This document shows positions 3,845-27,851 of a DNA stretch of 64,000 nt, one piece after another. The number at the start of each line of letters is the position of its first letter. The first letter of the stretch is position 1. Origin of the DNA: Dasypus novemcinctus (lineage: Eukaryota > Chordata > Mammalia > Cingulata > Dasypodidae). Under the pieces are notes generated by a model, which saw only the letters and a list, made by a program, of their open reading frames with translations, made no database searches and was not told where the DNA came from. The translations under genes were made by a program, and so were the position numbers. Location of the stretch: the NCBI RefSeq assembly GCF_030445035.2, contig NC_080696.1, positions 27,355,661 to 27,419,660 on the forward strand, given 5' to 3'.

Positions 3845-5760
3845 TGTATGTGGCTATTTTATTGGCTTTATTTTTGAAGAGATTTTAGATCACAAAAGGG
3901 TTACAACTGTGGCAGGGGAGATTCATTGGTGTGGGTGTCAGTGAATGGGAATGCATGGGGGGAAGTTCACCTGGCCATATATATAAGACATATACATGTG
4001 TTCAAATGTTCATGGGCATTGTCATGGTGGATGGAGAGTCACACAATAAACCAAAAGAATATCAAATTCCCATCTAGGGAAACTCATTCATTCTCTAATG
4101 GAAAAACAGGAATGCCCCAAGTACAGGGACAATGACTTGTGAAGGACAATGGCCCATTGAAGGAGCCTTGATATTGATGACTATGCTTATGAGCCACAGA
4201 AGGGTTACAACTCTGATGGGGGGATCTCTGCTGTAGGGTGTCAGTGTGGGGGGAGACATGGCAGGAAGGTCACCTGGGTGTACATGTAAGGCTATAAACA
4301 TGTTTAAATGTTCATGGGCCATTGTCACGGTAGGTGGAAGTTCACACAATAACCAAAAGAATATCAAATTAGAGCTCTGCCACATTCTCTAATAGAGTAA
4401 GAATACCTCAAGTACTGGAACAATGACTTGTGAAGGAGGATGGGACATTGAAAGACCCTTGATATTGATAACTATGCTTATGAGCCTTTACTCTTGAAAT
4501 TGAAACTTAGCTTAATTATGTAGGGTGCCTAAGAATTACCTACTGGGAACTTCCTTGTTGCTCAAATGTGGCCTCTCTGTAAGCCAAACTCAGTATATGA
4601 AAGCAATAAAATCCCCCTAGCATGGGACATGACTCCCAGGGATGATCCTCCCTGGCACTGATGGATTGCAAGCAAGTACCAACAAGCAATGCATCTGGAA
4701 AAAAGAAATCTTGACCAAAAAGGGGGAGAGCTAAAGTCAAATGAGTTTATATGGCTAAGAGACTTCAGAGCAAGTCAGGAGGCCATCCTAGAGGTAGCAC
4801 CTCCATACATCTCAACAGTATCACATTGACAGCCAAAGTAGGTACTACCCCAAATGGTGAAGCTCCCCAGTGATATGAAGACATTCAGACACTACAGTTA
4901 GGGCAGAGAGCTCAGGAATTTGTCTCCTTGCCAGTGGGCCCTAATCTGGTATTTATGCTTCTCAGTGTGACAGAATCAGCAGTGGTTTCCCTATACATGA
5001 CTCTTCTGTCCTTCTATTTGAACCTATAATTAGTACTAGAGTTGGTAGGTTTACATCTAAGAAACTTAAATCTTAAATCTTTGGGTTTTCCATGTGCCAG
5101 TGAGCTCTGAATCTTAACAGAGTCGCAACACTCACTTGCCAATTCAAAGGAATCACCAAGGACAATGAACAGGAAGAAGAATATGGACAAGGAACTAAGA
5201 GTGCCTAAAATGCAAGCAAGAGATCCCCATCCATCAGAAGATAGGCTCAAAGCCCTCTATTAATGATGGACTGGTCATCACCATCCCAGAGTCCTCAGGA
5301 TTGGGAAATGAACTATGGACTAAAATAACTTTATTAGTATTCTACCATTAACTTATTGTGATTCTAGCAATGGAAGAAGTACCATTATTGTGGAGGCAGT
5401 GACCCATGTATGTTAGGGGTTAGGGAGAGGGAAATTCAGGTGTAATAGGGGGGCATTTTCAGGACTTGGGAATCATCCTGAATGACATTTGTCATTGTAA
5501 TGACAAATACAGGCCATTATATATCTGGCCATAACCATCTGAGTCAGATGGGAGAGAGTGTAAACTATAATATGAAGTATAATCCATACTTAGTGGCAAT
5601 GCTCCAAATATGTTTCTCAATTGCAATGAATGCACTATACTGATGAAAGATGGGAAAATGTGGGAGGTGTGGGGAGCAGGGCATATGGAAATCCTCTATA
5701 CGATCTCTGTAACATTTATGTAATTGAAGTATCCTCTAAAAAATAAACAAAGTGAAAAAA
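3845..5760 (+). mobile_element. Older copy of the L1 long 3' UTR (module B)
   Basis: It matches 42,550-44,216 of L1-B in order: 'gattttagatcacaaaaggg', then two similar blocks with 'gttcatgggcattgtcatgg' and 'gttcatgggccattgtcacg', then 'tagcatgggacatgactccc', 'gggatgatcctccctggcac', and finally the G-rich end and A-rich tail at 5,740-5,770. The block at about 3,880-4,140 is repeated at about 4,190-4,440, so this copy has an internal duplication of about 300 bp. The short open frames in it are chance. Confidence 0.75.
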
Positions 5761-18710: not shown

Positions 18711-19779
18711 TTTACTTATTTCTTAGTATTTCTTATACATTGTTCATTTATTTATTTTTTTCTTATTTATTTTTTTTTAAAGTTACATTCAAAACATATA
18801 AGGTCCCCATATACCCCCCACCCCTCACCCCATTCCTCCCACATCAACAACCTTTTTCATCATTGTGGCATATTCATTGCATTTGGTGAATGTATTTTGG
18901 AGCAGTGCCACATGGATAGTGGTTTACATTGTAGTTTACAATCTCCCCCAGTCCACCCAGTGGGCCATGGCAGGACATACAATGTCCACGTCTGCCCCTG
19001 CAGTACCACCCAGGGCAACTTCAAGTCCTGAAAATGGCCCCACATCATATCTCTTCTTCCCTCTCCCTACACTCAGCAGCTACCATAGCCACTTTCTCCA
19101 CATCAATACTACAATTTCTTCCATTACTAATCACAATAGTTCCATAGTAGAATATAAATAAGTCCACTCTAATTCATACTCTATTTCTCCAGGCTGTTGG
19201 GCCCTGGGATGGTTATGTCCACTCCACCTTTATATCAAGAGGGGGCTTAGCTTCCACAAGGATGATGGATGCAATTCTGCTTGCAGTTGTAGGCAATCTT
19301 GGCTCCCTACTGTGGTGGTTGACCTTCTTCGCCTCCCTGTTAGCTAGCCATGGTAAGTCCAATAAATCAGATGGTAGGAGTTGCAAGTCTGCTGAGGATC
19401 AGGGCCTGGCTGTCACGTGGACAGGACAGCGATTCTGGTCTCCTGAGTATACACCAACCCCAGCACCAAACACAGGTCTGGTAAAAGTAACAGAAGAGGC
19501 TTGTGTAGAAAGGTCATATCTGAGTCCAACTCCATCATATTCAGGAACACAAACTCCAAAGTAGGGCCAACTGACATGATACTGAACTCCGGAGCCATCT
19601 GCCATGACTATTGAACCTGTGGGTCTCTGTGGCCCTCAGGAGAACCAGTACTTGGGCTTCTATCTACCACTTTGATGACCTCCTGGCTCTTTTGTGGAGA
19701 CTCAAAGCCATATAAACTCATTTGTCCTTTCCATTTCCCCCTTTCATCTGAAAACATAAAGCAGTTTTTAACATCTGAT
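18711..19779 (-). mobile_element. L1-D, 3' part (split by ERV1)
   Basis: Reverse complement of the end of the long xenarthran-type L1 3' UTR, collinear with about 43,120-44,216 of L1-B: 'gtttacattgtagtttacaa', 'cccagtgggccatggcagga', 'catagccactttctccacat', 'gccatctgccatgact'. It stops exactly at the ERV1 5' LTR and resumes after the 3' LTR at 27,852. The last 5 bp, CTGAT, are repeated on the far side. Confidence 0.9.
19775..19779. repeat. Target-site duplication of ERV1, left (CTGAT)
   Basis: CTGAT directly before the TG of the 5' LTR. The same five bases follow the CA of the 3' LTR at 27,847-27,851. If the two flanks are joined with one copy, the text is collinear with the L1 3' UTR in L1-B (about 43,120-43,150, reverse strand). 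Confidence 0.75.
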
Positions 19780-20213
19780 TGTTGGCGAGCTTGCTGGCAA
19801 ACAACATGTAGCCAAAATGACCACTAAGCATACACAATGGCTATCACAAATGGCACCTCCCTTCTTCCTAGCCAGTTTCCCACCAAAGAAGCCCGCTCGC
19901 CAACTTCAAAACTACCTCATCCAATCAAGTAGCTGCTTCATATTATCCCAATCCCCTTAGCCTATCTATAATTGACACCTCACCTCACGCCCCCACCCCT
20001 GCCTATATAAGCTGTACCACTTCCCCAATAAACTAGACCTGCGCCATGAGCCTGCGTCTCCGGGGTGGTTACTGTGTGTTTAACCTGGCTGGGTGATACC
20101 GGGCCCCGTCGTCACTCACAACCCATTCGAGAAGTTCGCCTCACCAAGGTGAAAGCCATCTAGCTAACGGCCAGGCCAGCCGCCTAGCTAACGGCCACAG
20201 GGGAACAGAGATT
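19780..20213 (+). repeat. ERV1 5' LTR
   Basis: Starts TGTTGGCGAGCTTGC and is about 95 % identical to 27,411-27,846. U3 carries a TATA box, TATATAA, at 20,004-20,010. An AATAAA polyadenylation signal follows only 17 nt later at 20,027-20,032, so the signal lies at or just before the cap site, an arrangement known from several class II elements. The matching 3' LTR ends in CA, while this copy ends in TT, so the last bases have probably mutated; an alternative end is the CA at 20,207. Confidence 0.9.
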
Positions 20214-20215
20214 TC

Positions 20216-20233
20216 TGGCAACCGAACAGGGAC
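20216..20233 (+). promoter_or_regulatory. ERV1 primer binding site (tRNA uncertain)
   Basis: TGGCAACCGAACAGGGAC starts 2 nt after the LTR. Retroviral primer sites begin TGG, matching the CCA end of a tRNA. The TGGCRACC start resembles arginine-tRNA sites of some ERVs, but I cannot assign the tRNA with confidence. It is not the lysine site typical of many betaretroviruses. Confidence 0.65.
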
Positions 20234-20260: not shown

Positions 20261-20269
20261 CGGTGAGTG
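20261..20269 (+). promoter_or_regulatory. Candidate major splice donor in ERV1 leader
   Basis: CGGTGAGTG is close to the consensus donor; the GT is at 20,263-20,264. It lies between the primer site and the gag start, where retroviruses place the donor used for the spliced env mRNA. Confidence 0.6.
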
Positions 20270-20278
20270 ACGCTCAGA

Positions 20279-20974
20279 ATGGGGAACTTAGCCTCTTCTG
20301 AGAAAGCACCTCAGGCGAGAGCACTACATGCTCTCTTAGTAAGCCACCGTGTTAAAATTACGGAAAAGGAGCTTGCACAATACTGGGACATTATTGTTTG
20401 CTTTAATCCGTGGCTTTCCACCACCCTCCTATGGGACCCCACCACATGGTCCAAATTAATTTCAAGAGTTCAGTCAGCCGAGACTCATGAACAAAACGTA
20501 TTCCCCCTAGGTCCCATGCCCACGCTCCAAGCCATTCACGCTTGTCTTTCTAACCCTACAGCCCTTCCCCCCCTCCTGATTATTCTCCACAAGACTCCCC
20601 TCCCCAACATACCCCTAAACCTGCACGACCTCCCCCTCCTGCGCCCAGTCCCTATATCCCGTTCTCCCAGCACCTTCCCCCTCCACTACCGCTACTCCTT
20701 CCCCTGCCTTTGTTCTACCTCCCCCCTCCCCTACCTCCGATCCTTCCCTTGCCGCTTCCTACTCGCCACCCTGCTCTGCACCACGGAAATTCCAGGACTG
20801 GAGCTGCAGAAGAGCAGGCGCTGCAGGCACCTGCCCCACCCCCTCCTCTGCTACCGCCCCCATAGAGCCCTTTGCCCCTCCCTTCGAACCCCCTTCTCTG
20901 CTTACCCCACAAAATACCACTCCCCCTCCCTTCTCTTCTCGAAACTCCTTCCTTCCCCCTCCGGCTCCGTCTAA
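20279..20974 (+). pseudogene. ERV1 gag, matrix and proline-rich part (broken)
   Basis: Gag forms the virion shell. I chose the ATG at 20,279 rather than 20,267 because it reads MGNLASSEK, with the Gly2 needed for N-terminal myristoylation of matrix. The first 100 or so residues look like a retroviral matrix (KITEKELAQYWDII, then a Trp-rich stretch). From about 20,550 the DNA is strongly C-rich and the true frame, very proline-rich, switches, so the annotated frame runs out at 20,974 in unrelated sequence. The capsid continues in another frame. A large opposite-strand frame across 20,715-21,143 is only the shadow of this C-rich stretch. Confidence 0.8.
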
Positions 20975-21030: not shown

Positions 21031-21809
21031 AATACTCTACTGACAACAATATTCCTGCATATTGGCAGCCTTGGGACTATAAAACTGTTTCTAACCTTAC
21101 TAAAGCTGTTCAAGAAGATGGTCTCAATAGCCCCTATGCTCAAATGCGCCTTGAAAATATTTCACTAGCCCACAATACTGCTAGCGACTGGAAAAATCTC
21201 CCTTGCGCTATACTCACCCCTACTGATTATGTCACGTGGTTAGCCCTTTATGATGATGGGGCTCGCCAGCAAGGCTCCCAAAACCTCTCTAACAACCTCC
21301 CTCATATTCCGCCTGACGTGCTCAAAGGTGAAGGGCAGTTTACTCTCCCCCAAATTCAGGCAGGCCTTCCTGCTCCTTACTCAGATCAGTGCGCCACCCT
21401 CGCCACCCTCGCTAAGGCCGCCTTCCATAAAATCAACCCAAATGGCAAGCCTGTGCAACTTGCTACGTTTATTCAGGAACCTAATGAGTCCTCTTCTGCT
21501 TTTTACAGTCGTGTTAAAGCGGCTGTTTATCGTAAAGTTTCTCACTCAACTGCAGCTGAAGCTTTACTTAAAGAACTATTGTGGGAAGGCCCGAATACTG
21601 CCTGTAAACAGGCTATCACTCCTATCCTTAATAAAACACCTACTGATTGGGTTCTTGCTTGTAGAGACATTGGCAGTATCGCTCTAGCCCTGGAGGTTTC
21701 ACCCTCCCCCGCTGTTTTGGCTGCTGCTGTCGCACAACATCTGCAGCAGCCACAAAGGCTCTGTTTTAAATGTCAACAACCAGGACATTTTGCTCAAGAG
21801 TGCCCGTAA
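21031..21809 (+). pseudogene. ERV1 gag, capsid and nucleocapsid part
   Basis: An open capsid frame without its own start: it is open from 21,031 (just after a TAA) and would be read as part of the Gag polyprotein. It has a major-homology-like segment (FIQEPNESSSAFYSRV, near 21,472) and ends with a clean zinc knuckle, CFKCQQPGHFAQEC (CX2CX4HX4C), coded just before the TAA at 21,807. A second cysteine cluster, CPRCCKGMHW, is visible after this stop at about 21,898-21,927, so the original Gag probably had two knuckles, a betaretroviral trait. A frameshift or stop separates this part from matrix. Confidence 0.85.
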
Positions 21810-21929: not shown

Positions 21930-22685
21930 TTGCCACTCCAAAACTGATATCATGGGTAATCCTCTCCCACCTTTAAACTTCCTGCAGTGCGCCTCTCAGT
22001 CCCGCCAGTAAGAGAGAACTTCCCCTACGTTAACGCCACAGCTTCTTCAATTACCGGCCCTCGGCTTGCCACCCCCTCGAATCTCCAACTGTTAGCAAAC
22101 CAGATAGCCGCAGTTGAAAAACATCTCATTAACAAATCTAACCCCCCACAACCCCCTCTCCCCTTTGATGCCACCAAACATTGGCTCGACCAGCTCAACC
22201 AACGATTAGACGATCTTGAGCAAGCAGTGCTATACGGTGATAATTCTGAAACCACTTCTACCACTGCTGAGCCCCCTTCGCCTGCCTCTTCCGAGTCAAA
22301 GGCTCCTCAAGCCTGCACCATAACCACCCTTCATCCCTCTGTTCACTGGGCCATACCCATTACTGCGCATAAAGCCTTCTTTACACTTACAGTCCAAGGA
22401 CATCCTATAAAAGGGCAAGTTGATACCGGCGCCGATATTTCTATTCTGTGCCCGCAGGATGTCCAGCCTTCCTGCACCTTGCAGTCTGGCCCCCTAGTAC
22501 AGGACGTTGCAGGGTTTCAGCAATCCCAGCGAGTCAGCACTCCCCTCTCATGGAGTGACCCTGATGGTAAAAGCGGTACTTTCCGCCCCTTAGTCATCCC
22601 TAACTTAGCTCACTCCCTCTGGGGACGTGACATCCTCCCTGTCAGTGGGGCAATCCTCACTACCCAAATGCCCCCCCAATTCTAA
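21930..22685 (+). pseudogene. ERV1 pro: aspartic protease
   Basis: The open frame from the first ATG runs 21,987-22,685. Its first 130 residues are a linker rich in Pro, Thr and Gln with a short helix-like part (LDQLNQRLDDLEQAV). The retropepsin follows: the active site QVDTGADISIL has its DTG at 22,422-22,430, and the C-terminal LWGRDILP matches the beta-type protease ending. I do not see the dUTPase domain that many betaretroviruses carry here. The frame is intact through the protease domain, but Pro would normally be made by frameshift from Gag, and the gag frame upstream is broken. Confidence 0.8.
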
Positions 22686-22699
22686 AGGCCACTGATCTG

Positions 22700-23630
22700 C
22701 CCCCTCCCTTTCACATTCCCTATCCCACTCCTGTTTAAGCTTAATTGGAGCACCATAAACCCAATTTGGACAGATCAGTGGCCATTGCCTCGCCAGAAAC
22801 TCCTTCCCCTGCTCCAGCTAGTTAAAGAACAAATACTTGCAGGTCATCTTGAACCTTCTGTAAACCCACATAACTCCCCTGTATTTGTCATTCAAAAGAA
22901 AATAACCAATACTCCTTCGAGACCTCCGCCAAGTTAATGCTCATCTCCAAAAAATTGGTTCCCCTCAGTCCGGCCTTCCACACCCTTCTGCCATTACACA
23001 TGGCTTTCATATAATCGCAGTAGATATCAAAGACTGTTTCTTTTCCATTCCGCTCCATGAGGCGGACCGCCCCTTTTTTGCCTTTTCACTGCCCGTTCCT
23101 AACAATGCATACCCGCAGTTGCGGTATCAGTGGAAAGTCCTTCCTCAAGGAATGAAAAATAGCCCAGCTATTTGTCAAATGTTTGTGAGTCAAGCAACCT
23201 CTCCGCTCCTCCCATACTGCCAAATAATTCACTATATGGACCATGTCCTTCTAGCACATCCGGACTTTAACAGGCTCCAAGCCTGTCTCCGCTCCCTGTT
23301 AAATAATTTCAACCAACTAGGCCTCAGAATCGCACCTGAAAAAATACAAACTGTGCCCCCATTTACCTTTTTGGGGTACACCATCACCAGTCATATATGA
23401 CCTGCCACCCCTAAGTTACAATTACCTTCCTCCTGCTCTCTCTCTCTCAATTACAGCAGTCTTGTGGGGATATCAATTGGCTACACCCCCACCTAAGTGT
23501 CACTACACAAGAACTTAAACCCTTATTCTCCCTCCTTGAAGAAGACGGCTACCCTTCCAGTCAGCGAACAGTCACCCCAGAAGCCCACCAAGCCCTACAA
23601 CTCATTAATGCTAAACTGGCTAATATTAGC
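22700..23630 (+). pseudogene. ERV1 pol: reverse transcriptase (broken)
   Basis: RT copies viral RNA into DNA. The N-terminal signature [20 protein letters not shown] is coded at about 22,776-22,835, followed by '[10 protein letters not shown]' near 22,871. The frame then shifts at least twice. The piece 23,119-23,400 holds the LPQG motif and the catalytic box, which reads YMDH (23,233-23,244) where YMDD is required: the second catalytic Asp is His. A stop closes this piece at 23,398-23,400. The connection domain continues in other frames. Enzymatically dead. Confidence 0.85.
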
Positions 23631-24490
23631 GTGACTAGATTTCAGCCCTCCGCCCCGCTCTTAGCCATTTTGCTCAATACTCCAGGCACACCCACGGGTG
23701 TCTTTTATCAACAGGCGCCCTTGTTCTGGGTACACCTTGCCACAAGTCAATTAGGACGAATCACTTCTCATGTAGACCGCCTTTGTATAATAGGACAAAA
23801 ACTTAGAAAAACAGCCATCCTCCTCTATGGAATAGAACCAGATACAAAAATCCTCCCCATTACTACTGAACAATTACAAACCCTGGCTCAAACAAGTCTC
23901 AACGTGCAACTTCTCCTAGCTAACTTTACTGGGCAAATCAGCCACCATAATCCAAAAGACAAACTCCTTACTGCCATGACTCTCCTCCCCTTTGTCGTCT
24001 CCTCTCATGCGTTCCCATCCACCTCTCCATTACCTCATGCCCCTACCATATTTACAGATGCTAATAAAACTCACTTTTCTATTGTAACCAAAAAAAAAAA
24101 AAAAAACCCTCTCTTAATTCTATCCAAGTGTTTCCACATGCCGGATCAGTGCAAGCTGGGGAGCTCCTAGCTCTTCTGCAAGCCTTTATACAAAATCAAT
24201 CCACCCCTATCAACATCTTTTCTGACAGCGCCTATGCCGCCAATGCCATTCGAATACTGCCCTATGCAACCCTAAAGGTTAAGCCCAGTCTGTTAATTGA
24301 TAGCACCCTTTTAGTGCTACAACTCCTCCTCAAAAATTGTACAGTTCCTTGGTATATACAGCATATCTGTTCACACACTGGATTACCTGGAGCACTAGTA
24401 GAAGGAAACAACCTTGCTGACTCCTCTCTCACTGTTTCCATACTCTACCTCCTTAGATCAAGCCAGGCTCCTACATGCAAAATTCCACAT
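23631..24490 (+). pseudogene. ERV1 pol: connection and RNase H (broken)
   Basis: Frames 23,631-24,170 and 24,128-24,499 overlap in different registers. The first contains the RT connection and the start of RNase H (TDANKT, first catalytic Asp at 24,057-24,059). A run of 17 A (24,090-24,106) follows at once and shifts the frame. The second carries FSDSAYAANAIRIL, with the third catalytic Asp of RNase H. The poly(A) run is probably a slippage expansion and by itself inactivates pol. Confidence 0.8.
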
Positions 24491-25138
24491 GTCAGCTAAC
24501 TCCCTCCATCACCTTTTTCCCAACATCACTCAAGCCCAGTGTAAGCACCTCACACGTGAGTGCAAACACTGTGCACCTTCCCTTCCTATAGGCCCCTTAC
24601 AGCCCCAAGGAGTTAATCCACGAGGCCTCCGTCCAAACGCACTGTGGCAATGGACATCACACATGTCCCCTTGTTTGTCTGCTATAAATTTGTCCACGTA
24701 ATAGTAGACACATTCTCCAAATTTCTCTTCACCACTGCTTTACCTGGAGAAAAAGCAAAAAATGTTATAACAGCCTGCCTTCAAGCCTTTAATCAAATGG
24801 GTATCCCTTGGACTATAAAAACAGATAATGGACCCTGCTTTCAGTCCAAAACTTTTAAACAATTTTGCCATGACTGGAACATTCAACACAAAACAGGAAT
24901 CCCTTATAACCCACAAAGACAGGCCCTAGTTCAGCGATCTAATGCGCTCCTCAAAAATACAGTCAAGAAACTTTCAGGGGAGTTCCCTACAGCAACCCCC
25001 CGAGATTTGCTCTACAGAGCCCTAGTCACTATCAACTTCCTTACCTTTGACAAAAATCATACTACTCCAGCAATCCAGCATTGGGGAGGCCTAAGACTAG
25101 ACCCCACACTGGTCCCCCTTGTTATGTGGAAAGACTAA
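24430..25138 (+). pseudogene. ERV1 pol: integrase (broken, catalytic Glu changed)
   Basis: Integrase inserts viral DNA into the host genome. The zinc-binding HHCC domain is visible: HAKFH followed by CKHLTRECKHC (24,414-24,701 frame). The core domain is in the next frame (24,644-25,138), with catalytic Asp in MDITHV (24,653) and in KTDNGP (24,824). The third residue of the D,D-35-E triad is coded CAG, Gln, at 24,932-24,934, at the right spacing of 36 codons after the second Asp. A frame change falls between the zinc domain and the core. Inactive. Confidence 0.85.
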
Positions 25139-25140
25139 CC

Positions 25141-25400
25141 TATGGAAAGGCCCCCACCCCCTACTAACACAAGGACGAGGATATGCTTGTATCTTTCCAG
25201 AAAACACCGACCAGCCTTTGTGGATCCCAAGCCATCTCATAAAATCTGCCACTGAAACTAATGCAGCTGTGTAGCCTGCCTGGACTCCTTCTATGTAGCT
25301 TCGTCACCATTGTTGGAACCCTCCTGTTATTCGCTGGCTCTCCAAGTGACTGGACAACGCTGCACAAATCCTTCCTCCTCATTTTCTTTGTAATGTATAT
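25141..25400 (+). other. ERV1 end of integrase and pol-env junction
   Basis: Degenerate remainder of the integrase C-terminal domain in shifted frames, leading into env. I did not pick out a single convincing env splice acceptor. Confidence 0.5.
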
Positions 25401-26474
25401 TTGCCTTCTCCTCATTATTGCCTGCTGTATGTAACCTGCCCACCCACCATGTGTCGCCTCTTATACATACTCACCCTTTCTTCACTTATCCTGCCCACCG
25501 CCCTCACCAATATAAAGGCCCTTTACCTCTGGACGTTTAAAGCGCACGAAACTTATACTAGCAATTACTGCACCATACCCACAACCATTGGATCTAAACA
25601 TTGCCCACCTACTGGATGTGCACACACCATCTACATTAAATTAGATCCCCAACCCTTCCCAGGAGCAAAAAAGTCTTCCGAATGGAGCAGGGGACCGTCA
25701 AAACCATGGGCTAGTTTTCCCTTTCTACAAACAAAAACCTATTGTAATGCCTCCAGCTACGATTGCACATATGGAGGCTGCCCTTTCTCCTGGGGCTGCA
25801 TATGCCCTGTGCCCATTGACTGCCCGTTCATAAAAGATTTGAAAGACCTCTATAATTGTAAAAAGATAAAACCCCTGCCACGCTACTTTTGCCTCGTTTA
25901 TCAAGACCCCTGTAATTCCTCACTAATTATTCTCATTACTGATCCCTGGCACCCCAGATGGGTCCAAGGAGTAGTCTACCGATGGCCTTTGAGCCAATAC
26001 CCCTCTAGCACCCTCAACATATACAGAGAATACTCCCTATACAATGTCTCTCATAGTCTCCCAAGCATTAAACAAGAAATTCTAAATGCAGAAAAATCTT
26101 TAAACGCAGCCCTTAGTCACAAGCCCCTCCAAATTGTTCTCCCCTCCTGGATTCAACTCCTTGAATCTACGCTCTCTTTCCTTAATCAATCTAACATTGT
26201 GTCCAACCCCTCTCACTGCTTCCTCTGCGCAGCTCTCAGTCGCCCACTGCTTGCTGCTATGCCCATACTTGTTAACAACTCACATATCTCAAACCATAGT
26301 AATTCTCACTGTAAAAATCCTATACCTAATATCCCTCTAGCAAACATCAACTTCGTCAATTTCATTTGCATTTTTATCAACAACTCTCTCTCATTCATCA
26401 ACCAGTCATTTCCCTGCACCCACAATGTATCAGTTTCTTCTACATTTTCTGCGCCTACCGGCCTCCACCTATGA
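25401..26474 (+). pseudogene. ERV1 env: surface subunit (long open frame)
   Basis: A 357-codon frame, the longest in the window. It starts at 25,401 or, more likely, at the ATG at 25,449, just before a hydrophobic signal-peptide-like stretch (LLYILTLSSLILPTALT). The rest is Cys-rich and has many N-glycosylation sequons, as expected for a retroviral surface glycoprotein. A CXXC motif, CFLC, is coded at 26,217-26,228; gamma and type D env use such a motif to hold the transmembrane subunit. The frame ends at a TGA at 26,472-26,474 before any cleavage site, so surface and transmembrane parts are no longer joined. Whether it is still transcribed cannot be told. Confidence 0.85.
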
Positions 26475-27094
26475 TGTAATCACACCCTACTCACCTGCCT
26501 CAATAGCAGTTATCCACAGCCTTGTCTACTAGTAGCCCTAACCCCTCAACTCACACTATATAGTGAAGATGAAATAAAAACACTGCTCACACCAATACAA
26601 AAAAAAGCTGCCTTCCTCCCCATATTAGTAGGGATTAGCTTTGCAGCTTCAGTCCCTGCAGCTGCCACAGCAGGTGGCGCCCTTGGTCATGGTCTCATCA
26701 GTTCACAATACTTTGAACAACAACAACAAATCAGTATAGAATCCACTGCATAGTCCCTTGACTCTCTGCAGCAGCAACTAACCTCCCTCGCCCAAGTAAC
26801 CTTACAAAACCACAGAGCCTTAGATTTACTCAAGCTGAAAAAGGAGGCACATGCCTATTCCTCCAAGAAGAATGCTGTTACTATATTAATGAATCTGGAG
26901 TCATAGAACAAAATGTAAAGAAACTTAATGAGCTACGTAAAAACTTATATACCAATCAAAAGAGTGCCAATTCTTTTCTTGGATGGTTTTCCTCTCCCAT
27001 CACAGCGTGGCTCGCCTCCCTCCTTAGTCTTCTTATACTAATCATTATTTTCTTCACCATAGCACCTTGTCTCTTAAAATGGCTGCAGAGGTGA
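26475..27094 (+). pseudogene. ERV1 env: transmembrane subunit (broken)
   Basis: Remains of the membrane-fusion subunit. A hydrophobic, Ala/Gly-rich fusion-peptide-like stretch lies at about 26,620-26,700. An in-frame TAG follows at about 26,751. The CX6CC motif that marks gamma/type D TM is coded at 26,852-26,878. A Leu/Ile-rich membrane anchor lies at about 27,000-27,070, and the frame ends at TGA 27,092-27,094. At least one stop and one frameshift separate these parts, so no functional TM can be read. Confidence 0.85.
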
Positions 27095-27241
27095 ATAGAA
27101 AACATTTCTGCCTTCACTATTTACTCCATGCAACTCCGCCAGTACCAACCGCTTGCGCAAGAAGAAACTGAAGCCACCACTGCCGTGTAGCTGTGTAGCT
27201 AGCACACAGCTATCTTCCCTCCAGCCACAAAGCTCAGTTGG

Positions 27242-27372
27242 CAGCCAGAGATGGGTAAGACCTCCCGAGGGAGGCAACCTAAGACAGGCACAACTGCATG
27301 ACATAAATGACTGATAACTGGTAGCCAAAGATGGGTAAGATTCTCAAGGGAGAACAACCTAAGACAGGCACA
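27242..27372 (+). promoter_or_regulatory. CTE-like RNA export element (duplicated module)
   Basis: Two copies of a module lie between the env stop and the 3' LTR. GATGGGTAAGA occurs at 27,250-27,260 and 27,330-27,340. CAACCTAAGACAGGCACA occurs at 27,275-27,292 and 27,355-27,372. The spacer between the two motifs is 14 nt in both copies and can fold back: CCTCC/GGAGG around CGAG in the first, TTCTC/GAGAA around AAGG in the second. The stems keep pairing although their bases differ. Type D retroviruses carry in this same place the constitutive transport element, a duplicated structure with GGGTAA and CCTAAGACAGG elements that binds cellular NXF1 (TAP) to export unspliced RNA. Position, duplication and motif all agree. 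Confidence 0.85.
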
Positions 27373-27394
27373 GTTATTGCAGTCTTGAAATAAA

Positions 27395-27410: not shown

Positions 27411-27846
27411 TGTTGGTGAGCTTGCTGGCAAACAACATGTAGCCAAAATGGCCACTAAGTATATGCAATGGCTATCACAAATGGCACCTCCCTTCTTCCT
27501 AGTCAGTTTCCCACCAGAGAAGCCCGCGCGCACCAACTTCAAAACTACCTCATCCAATCAAGTAGCTGCTTCATATTATCCCGATCCCCTTAGCCTATCT
27601 ATAATTGACACGTCACCTCATGCCCCCACCCCTGCCTATATAAGCTGTACCACTTCCCCAGTAAACTAGACCTGTGCCATGAGCCTGCGTCTCCGGGGTG
27701 GTTACTGTGTGTTTAACCTGGCTGTGTGATACCGGGCCCCGTCGTCACTCACAACCCGTTTGAGAAGTTCACCTCACTGAGGCAAAAGCCATCTAGCTAA
27801 CGGCCAGGCCAGCTGCCTAGCTAACAGCCACAGGGGAACAGCGACA
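27411..27846 (+). repeat. ERV1 3' LTR
   Basis: Starts TGTTGGTGAGCTTGC and ends GGGGAACAGCGACA, followed by the CTGAT duplication. TATATAA is at 27,637-27,643. The polyadenylation signal is AGTAAA at about 27,660, changed from AATAAA in the 5' LTR. Many of the differences from the 5' LTR are C/T or G/A. Confidence 0.9.
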
Positions 27847-27851
27847 CTGAT
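27847..27851. repeat. Target-site duplication of ERV1, right (CTGAT)
   Basis: Identical to 19,775-19,779. L1-D sequence continues straight after it ('attacatgtagactgagata'). Confidence 0.75.

What the first reader, a model, noticed from the sequence alone, without database searches (positions are those of the whole stretch)
27242..27372. A type D-like constitutive transport element in an armadillo-type provirus
Seen: GATGGGTAAGA and CAACCTAAGACAGGCACA each occur twice, 80 nt apart, between the env stop and the 3' LTR. The 14-nt spacer in each copy folds into a 5-bp stem whose bases differ between copies but still pair (CCTCC/GGAGG; TTCTC/GAGAA). Known: the Mason-Pfizer virus CTE sits in the same place, is internally duplicated, has GGGTAA and CCTAAGACAGG elements, and binds NXF1 to export unspliced RNA. 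Inference: ERV1 used the same host export route. Motif preservation in a provirus whose genes are all broken may reflect youth or, less likely, later use by the host.
Basis: partly seen in the sequence, partly recalled or inferred. Interest (0 to 1): 0.87.

Follow-up and report, generated by a model that had tools for sequence, protein, structure and literature searches.

The report
Type D-like RNA export hairpins, genome-wide
An old, broken virus in this animal's DNA carries two RNA hairpins that look like the signal monkey type D retroviruses use to leave the cell nucleus, and the same signal sits in many other old viruses of the genome, beside more than one kind of envelope gene.

Summary
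Two hairpins of 62 and 64 nt lie between the env stop and the 3' LTR (27235-27296, 27314-27377). Each joins the two arms of the half-site known from the SRV-1 constitutive transport element (CTE), which binds the host exporter NXF1. Between the copies 7 of 11 stem pairs changed on both sides and none broke, so each copy folds alone; the type D long two-fold hairpin is 13 kcal/mol worse. Gag-pol is class II (beta-like), env gamma-type. In the same 3.61-Gb genome the exact half-site occurs 1304 times, against 1 for the reversed pattern. Of 46 loci consecutive on the map, 22 have gamma-type env upstream, 15 beta-type env, 8 class II pol without recognised env, 1 nothing. Solo, tandem and canonical-order forms occur. 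So the element is not tied to the gammaretroviral env, which bears on a question left open in print. Close copies vary no less in the element than in its flanks, so I see no sign of host use. NXF1 binding and export are inferred, not tested.

The parts
27235..27296 (+). Half-site hairpin 1: basal stem 27235-27240/27291-27296, GCC/GGC 27244-27246/27287-27289, internal loop, GGT/ACC 27254-27256/27277-27279, apical stem 27261-27265/27270-27274
   Evidence: (core pairs 0.945-0.997)
27314..27377 (+). Half-site hairpin 2, same plan, stems changed in compensating fashion
   Evidence: (core pairs 0.945-0.998)
27244..27260 (+). X arm of copy 1 (GCCAGAGATGGGTAAGA)
   Evidence: compared with the SRV-1 half-CTE primer letters in PMC4330393 (13 of 18)
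27275..27289 (+). Y arm of copy 1 (CAACCTAAGACAGGC)
   Evidence: the 13-nt AACCTAAGACAGG is identical to the SRV-1 primer
27324..27340 (+). X arm of copy 2 (GCCAAAGATGGGTAAGA); 22 of 40 aligned rows read GAC instead of GAT, as in the SRV-1 primer
   Evidence: 14 of 18
27355..27369 (+). Y arm of copy 2 (CAACCTAAGACAGGC)
19780..20210 (+). 5' LTR (3' border approximate); candidate 5-bp target-site duplication CTGAT at 19775-19779
27411..27846 (+). 3' LTR; candidate CTGAT duplication at 27847-27851; LTR pair K2P 0.056 (20 transitions, 3 transversions in 428 aligned bases)
20216..20233 (+). Candidate primer-binding site by eye; resembles the tRNA-Lys3 type (label recalled, not tested)
20267..20971 (+). 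gag N-terminal piece, betaretroviral p10 (marginal match)
   Evidence: PF02337, 24.0 bits against a cut-off of 23.9
21033..21806 (+). gag p24 and one zinc knuckle, class II type
21960..22682 (+). Protease piece; best solved relatives 1nso/3sqf (Mason-Pfizer protease, label recalled); no dUTPase domain found in it
22906..23397 (+). Reverse transcriptase piece, class II
23415..24167 (+). RT thumb piece (PF06817)
24068..24496 (+). RNase H piece (PF00075)
24617..25135 (+). Integrase piece, best solved relatives 3jca, 7usf, 5cz1 (3jca and 5cz1 recalled as MMTV integrase)
25350..26471 (+). env surface piece by position; no Pfam match
26762..27094 (+). env transmembrane piece, gamma type (PF00429); nearest named relatives ERV-Fc1-like env proteins, then syncytin-1 among solved structures

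Best explanation
The element is a CTE-type nuclear RNA export signal of a class II (betaretrovirus-like) provirus with a gamma-type env. Each of its two hairpins presents one AAGACA-type internal loop flanked by GCC/GGC and GGT/ACC pairs. In the virus's life each hairpin most likely bound one host NXF1:NXT1 unit, so that unspliced genomic and gag-pol RNA could leave the nucleus without a viral Rev-like protein. Shown by sequence: motifs, position, preference for separate folding, compensating changes, spread through class II families. Inferred: NXF1 binding, export. In this genome the signal exists as solo hairpin, tandem hairpins (the window) and canonical-order long hairpin, beside both env types, so it goes with the class II backbone or its 3' end rather than with the gamma env. 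Close copies show no constraint after insertion.
For: Arms match the SRV-1 half-CTE primers: 13 identical nt in Y, 13 and 14 of 18 in X. 7 of 11 pairs changed on both sides between the copies, none broken. Over 38 distinct short-spacer strings 93% of apical-stem cells pair (26 of 38 stems complete), reached by 0 of 5000 re-deals; basal stems 82% (9 of 19 complete), reached by 5 of 5000. 1304 half-sites against 1 control; 240 Y-to-X matches against 0. 45 of 46 consecutive loci have retroviral coding remains upstream; of the 26 with over 5 kb fetched, 23 have class II capsid, RT or integrase, including all 14 with gamma-type env. Canonical order folds within 0.0-2.7 kcal/mol of the optimum in 6 of 9 loci examined; 3 did not fit my expression. 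A paper states that both lobes of the CTE can bind NXF1:NXT1 independently (passage, PMC4330390).
Against: No binding or export test was possible. The window element does not favour the two-fold hairpin that defines the known CTE. Single arms are not rare: elsewhere in the 64-kb window the best Y and X scores also reach 13; the paired arrangement is what is rare. If all changes were transitions, 11 surviving pairs would have probability 0.065. No type D genome was available, so common descent with the Mason-Pfizer CTE is not shown. Loci were chosen for having the element, so I do not know how many class II proviruses lack it, and I had no class I pol query. 11 of 40 close copies have lost at least one of four motifs.
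Confidence: 0.84

Rival explanations
1. The RNA uses the classical long two-fold CTE hairpin (X1:Y2 and Y1:X2), so it is simply a type D CTE.
For: The motif order X1-Y1-X2-Y2 allows it, and other families in the same genome can fold so.
Against: Forced long fold -36.1 against -49.3 kcal/mol and pair probability 0; long register above 0.5 in 0 of 40 rows; spacers pair at 6 of 18 and flanks at 0 of 7, twice, in that register.
Confidence: 0.06
2. It is SPRE, the syncytin post-transcriptional element of many ERVs that also lies just 5' of the 3' LTR.
For: Same place and wide spread through ERVs (PMC8579622, parts 1-3 of 7 read).
Against: The 17-nt SPRE core is absent from the window at up to 3 mismatches.
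Confidence: 0.01
3. A structured 3' UTR element that helps stability, translation, packaging or polyadenylation rather than export.
For: Stems covary strongly, and the start of one abstract says the Mason-Pfizer CTE region also meets the helicase DHX15 in connection with packaging (PMC11459146, search listing only).
Against: The conserved unpaired letters are those of the NXF1-binding loop (AAGACA).
Confidence: 0.08
4. The CTE reached these viruses together with the gammaretroviral env (option ii of PMC3621094) and later spread to others by recombination of the 3' end.
For: All 9 tandem elements seen and 12 of 15 canonical-order ones are in gamma-env loci. The 3' end is exchanged: for ten close copies the element is 94-96% alike while their TM DNA, where it aligns, is 70-84% alike, and 2 of 10 carry L070-type integrase.
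Against: The element is also beside beta-type env (19 loci seen) and in families without recognised env (8 seen). On the integrase tree gamma-env loci are not one group (AU p 7.9e-9).
Confidence: 0.2

Closest known systems
Constitutive transport element of Mason-Pfizer monkey virus / SRV-1
   Same: Between env and 3' LTR; two half-sites; AAGACA-type loop; AACCTAAGACAGG and CCAAAGAYGGGTAA arms
   Different: In the window each half-site is its own hairpin capped on the GGT/ACC side; the known CTE is one long stem-loop with two internal loops. The provirus has a TM closer to ERV-Fc1-like env and syncytin-1 than to 4jf3 (Mason-Pfizer TM, label recalled)
Predicted Tap-binding elements in bat endogenous betaretroviruses (PMC3621094, passages)
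   Same: Class II proviruses with predicted NXF1-binding motifs within or 3' of env
   Different: There reported for most of group VII; here with covarying stems, three architectures and three env contexts in one genome
CTE-like motif in an intron-retaining NXF1 transcript (passage in PMC4330390)
   Same: Host RNA using the same exporter by the same kind of motif
   Different: Cellular gene; this genome's NXF1 locus could not be found
SERV-K/MER11 transport element (PMC11379458, passages)
   Same: Betaretroviral lineage using a Rec-independent element near the 3' end
   Different: About 1000 nt and without obvious NXF1-binding loops according to that paper

Membership tests
Type D retrovirus CTE (MPMV/SRV) | Lies between env and the 3' LTR | tested here: met
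   env stop 27092-27094, LTR from about 27411
Type D retrovirus CTE (MPMV/SRV) | Two half-sites with conserved AAGACA internal loop | tested here: met
Type D retrovirus CTE (MPMV/SRV) | One long stem-loop with two internal loops in two-fold symmetry | tested here: not met
   Window: (prediction and covariation). Fold compatible in 6 of 9 other loci examined, so the window element is filed as a variant
Type D retrovirus CTE (MPMV/SRV) | Direct binding of NXF1:NXT1 | not testable with these tools
   Needs gel shift or crosslinking
Type D retrovirus CTE (MPMV/SRV) | Rev-independent export of unspliced RNA | not testable with these tools
   Needs a reporter assay
Type D retrovirus CTE (MPMV/SRV) | Common descent with the known CTEs | tested here: inconclusive
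   Only the SRV-1 half-CTE primers could be compared; scans of viral contigs found no type D genome
SPRE | 17-nt core TCAGCAGGAAGCAGTTA | tested here: not met
   0 matches at up to 3 mismatches in 64 kb
Class II (betaretrovirus-like) provirus with gamma-type env | Class II gag-pol domains | tested here: met
Class II (betaretrovirus-like) provirus with gamma-type env | Gamma-type TM (PF00429) | tested here: met
Class II (betaretrovirus-like) provirus with gamma-type env | dUTPase in pro, expected of betaretroviruses | tested here: inconclusive
   Not found in the protease piece at E up to 10; it could be lost or lie elsewhere

The most novel reading that the evidence does not exclude
This genome preserves the steps by which the two-fold symmetric CTE arose: a solo NXF1-binding hairpin (19 of 19 beta-env loci seen), its tandem duplication (window family), and strand exchange between the duplicates that fuses them into the long hairpin (canonical-order families). 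The export signal travels as a 3' cassette of class II retroviruses, and carrying it made them free to trade a beta env, with any Rev-like protein inside it, for a gamma env.
Probability: 0.3. Interest if true: 0.82.

Novelty: new variant of a known kind. Interest (0 to 1): 0.7.

Why it matters
Two papers touch on whether the type D CTE came with the gammaretroviral env or was there before: PMC3621094 (passages) sets out both options, and PMC11379458 (passages) raises arrival with env. Here one genome offers many class II proviruses with beta-type env, gamma-type env or no recognised env that share the element, so the question can be put to trees and to bench tests. It also suggests that NXF1 recruitment by a single hairpin may suffice, that the symmetric CTE may be a derived form, and it gives hundreds of natural variants for mapping NXF1 recognition. 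My ten paper searches showed no listed title on this; I opened ten papers, mostly by passages, and none of what I read reports it. The armadillo betaretrovirus paper of 2016 and the 2001 TAP-binding-sequence paper are not held, so they may bear on it.

Tried and rejected
SPRE was my first lead; its core motif is absent. Rfam gives nothing for the window and one match far below its cut-off on the wrong strand for a canonical-order locus, so absence from Rfam says nothing. IMG/VR pattern scans gave two hits (L001, L002), which I read by eye as chance matches in phage-like coding sequence; protein scans there confirmed no relatives. Homology searches listed no named exogenous type D Pol (one search listed 120 of 3033), so the place of the pol against Mason-Pfizer virus stays open. 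Constraint among close copies gave no signal. For 10 close copies I fetched a piece at the window's RT offset and one at the TM: 0 of 10 held RT, 4 held weak capsid and 2 integrase of the L070 kind, so internal lengths or backbones differ; 10 of 10 held gamma TM remains. This cost me the simple statement that CTE and backbone are always inherited together.

Rows dropped: L073 was left out of the second integrase tree for its long branch (the tree with it needed 4 changes for gamma env, 3 forced). Loci without an integrase stretch of 75 residues or 90 residues did not enter the trees. In one search, 3 of 9 loci (L074, L092, L096) did not fit my search expression. In one search I used short-spacer strings of 34-37 nt as I copied them from the listed places; two longer odd ones (40 and 42 nt) and the 45-48-nt class were left out. 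Of 92 loci that I drew up from the listed places I fetched 12 chosen and 40 in map order; 40 were not fetched. The 46 consecutive loci are those 40 plus 6 of the chosen ones that lie in the same run. The odds of the novel case were lowered from 0.33 to 0.3 on checking, because some loci called solo carry degenerate second arms.

Full report
What is there. Between the env stop (27092-27094) and the 3' LTR (from about 27411) lie two copies, 80 nt apart, of a unit with an X arm (GCCARAGATGGGTAAGA) and a Y arm (CAACCTAAGACAGGC). The 211-nt region folds better than any of 200 shuffles (-60.9 kcal/mol, z -3.68); the 162-nt core than 199 of 200 (z -2.91); hairpin 1 alone than 197 of 200, hairpin 2 alone than all 200. 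Each unit forms its own hairpin: basal stem, GCC/GGC, an internal loop with AAGACA, GGT/ACC, apical stem. Core pair probabilities are 0.945 to 0.998.

Which fold. The known type D CTE is one long stem-loop with two internal loops (PMC7551171, passage) in two-fold symmetry (PMC4330390, passages). Forcing that register on the window costs 13 kcal/mol (-36.1 against -49.3); its spacers pair at only 6 of 18 places and its flanks at none of 7, twice. In contrast 7 of 11 pairs of the local stems changed on both sides between the copies, 4 stayed and none broke. If the same number of changes fell at random, all 11 pairs would stay standard with probability 0.00009, 0.0006 or 0.065 when 50, 67 or 100% of changes are transitions. 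Local stems exceed probability 0.5 in 35 to 40 of 40 rows, the long register in 0 of 40.

Resemblance to the SRV-1 element. A paper prints primers for the SRV-1 half-CTE (PMC4330393, passages). The 13-nt AACCTAAGACAGG is identical; the X arm agrees at 13 (copy 1) and 14 (copy 2) of 18. At the differing loop position 16 of 40 rows in X1 and 22 of 40 in X2 carry the C of the primer. Taken alone such scores also occur elsewhere in the window (best 13 and 13), so the evidence is the paired arrangement: 2 hits in the window and none in 100 shuffles.

The host provirus. Gag p10 (marginal) and p24, protease, RT with thumb, RNase H and integrase are class II. Solved relatives agree: 8c9m Gag at 63 bits (recalled as HERV-K) and HERV-K capsids, 7sr6 for RT (recalled as HERV-K), 3jca and 5cz1 for integrase (recalled as MMTV), 1nso and 3sqf for protease (recalled as Mason-Pfizer). 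The TM piece is gamma-type, nearest to ERV-Fc1-like env, and among solved structures to syncytin-1 (48 bits) before 4jf3 (33 bits, recalled as Mason-Pfizer). No open frame of full gene length is among those listed. The LTRs differ by K2P 0.056, about 9 to 13 million years at assumed rates of 3.0 and 2.2e-9 per site and year.

Spread. The 211-nt element has 40 scored matches of 547 candidates at 93-100%. The half-site pattern has 1304 exact matches in the genome against 1 for the reversed pattern. Among 38 distinct short-spacer strings copied from the listed places, 93% of apical-stem cells pair and 26 stems are complete, 12 not; re-dealing the 3' arms gives a mean of 80% and reached the value in 0 of 5000. 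Basal arms: 41 half-sites, 19 distinct arm pairs, 82% of cells paired and 9 of 19 complete, against a mean of 76%, reached in 5 of 5000. The pattern did not ask for either stem.

Context. I took the first 46 loci of the list in map order (6 of them fetched as chosen examples, 20, 20 shorter ones). By tblastn 22 have gamma-type TM, 15 beta-type TM, 8 class II pol but no recognised env, and 1 nothing (L105, whose 3' end matches the L092/L075 kind). Weak calls are L089 (55 bits) and L114 (58 bits). Of the 26 with over 5 kb upstream, 23 show class II capsid, RT or integrase: 14 of 14 gamma-env, 5 of 8 beta-env, 4 of 4 without env. No class I pol query was used. Pfam confirmed beta-type TM (PF00517) in L070 and L076 and found it just under the cut-off in L071 and L078; gamma TM (PF00429) in L081 and L077; L072 is a class II family without recognised env and with a G-patch after the protease. 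In the integrase tree of 25 rows gamma-env loci do not form one group (log-likelihood 172.9 lower when held together, AU p 7.9e-9); 3 changes are needed and 2 are forced by well-supported branches.

Architectures, by the places of exact or one-mismatch Y arms. One hairpin: 19 of 19 beta-env loci (12, 7), 7 of 8 loci without env, and L097, L099, L106 of the gamma ones. L072, L090 and L094 also have a two-mismatch Y-like stretch at +70 and L099 an X-like one at +86, so some of these may be decayed tandems. Tandem: window, L077, L081, L082, L084, L089, L091 (second Y with two mismatches), L107, L119, all gamma. Canonical order, with a Y arm 45-66 nt before X: L074, L075, L088, L092, L093, L096, L098, L104, L108, L113, L115, L117 (gamma), L086 (no env), L079 and L105 (no coding found). 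In 6 of 9 loci examined the canonical fold could be set up and lay 0.0 to 2.7 kcal/mol from the optimum. The Y-to-X pattern has 240 matches against 0; four of the listed ones are of the tandem kind rather than canonical.

A complication. For ten close copies the element is 94-96% alike, but their TM DNA, where it aligns, is 70-84% alike to the window's; the piece at the window's RT offset held RT in 0 of 10, weak capsid in 4 and integrase of the L070 kind in 2. These copies were picked for their 3' end. So the 3' end (element and LTR) seems to have been exchanged among backbones. The data show that the element is not tied to gamma env; they do not say whether it first came with one.

Host use. 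Over 40 rows the variation outside CpG sites was 0.0077 in helices, 0.0054 in loops, 0.0080 elsewhere inside the element and 0.0093 outside it, permutation p 0.26 for helices and loops against the rest. That gives no sign of constraint after insertion, with the caveat that the copies were those most like the window. 29 of 40 keep all four motifs.

Reading. The best account is an NXF1-recruiting export signal of the CTE kind in a tandem-hairpin form. Sequence, position, predicted fold and covariation are shown; binding and export are inferred from the papers cited. As the two-fold long hairpin was tested and not met, I do not file the window element as a type D CTE but as a variant that probably works like one.

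Noticed in passing
G000 C2:20034057-20063507: Five half-site hits with the L072-type spacer on one strand at steps of about 7.2-7.4 kb: possibly a tandem array of proviruses.
   Followed up: no
G000 C47:82664932-82872356: Four copies of the window element, two on the minus and two on the plus strand, in an apparently inverted arrangement.
   Followed up: no
L050-L069: Close copies of the element carry TM DNA only 70-84% alike to the window's where it aligns, and 2 of 10 another integrase type, a sign of 3' end exchange.
   Followed up: partly
27188-27212: Perfect 9-bp inverted repeat TAGCTGTGT/ACACAGCTA just 5' of the element.
   Followed up: no
20028-20033 and 27660-27665: AATAAA in the 5' LTR reads AGTAAA at the matching place of the 3' LTR.
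   Followed up: no
L072:2895-3386: Class II family without recognised env, with a G-patch domain after the protease as in Mason-Pfizer virus (the likeness is recalled), and a half-site.
   Followed up: partly
L110: Half-site with a longer apical stem (CCCTTA/TAAGGG) beside a beta-type env.
   Followed up: no
3891-4486: A 303-bp unit repeated twice in tandem, 78% matches.
   Followed up: no
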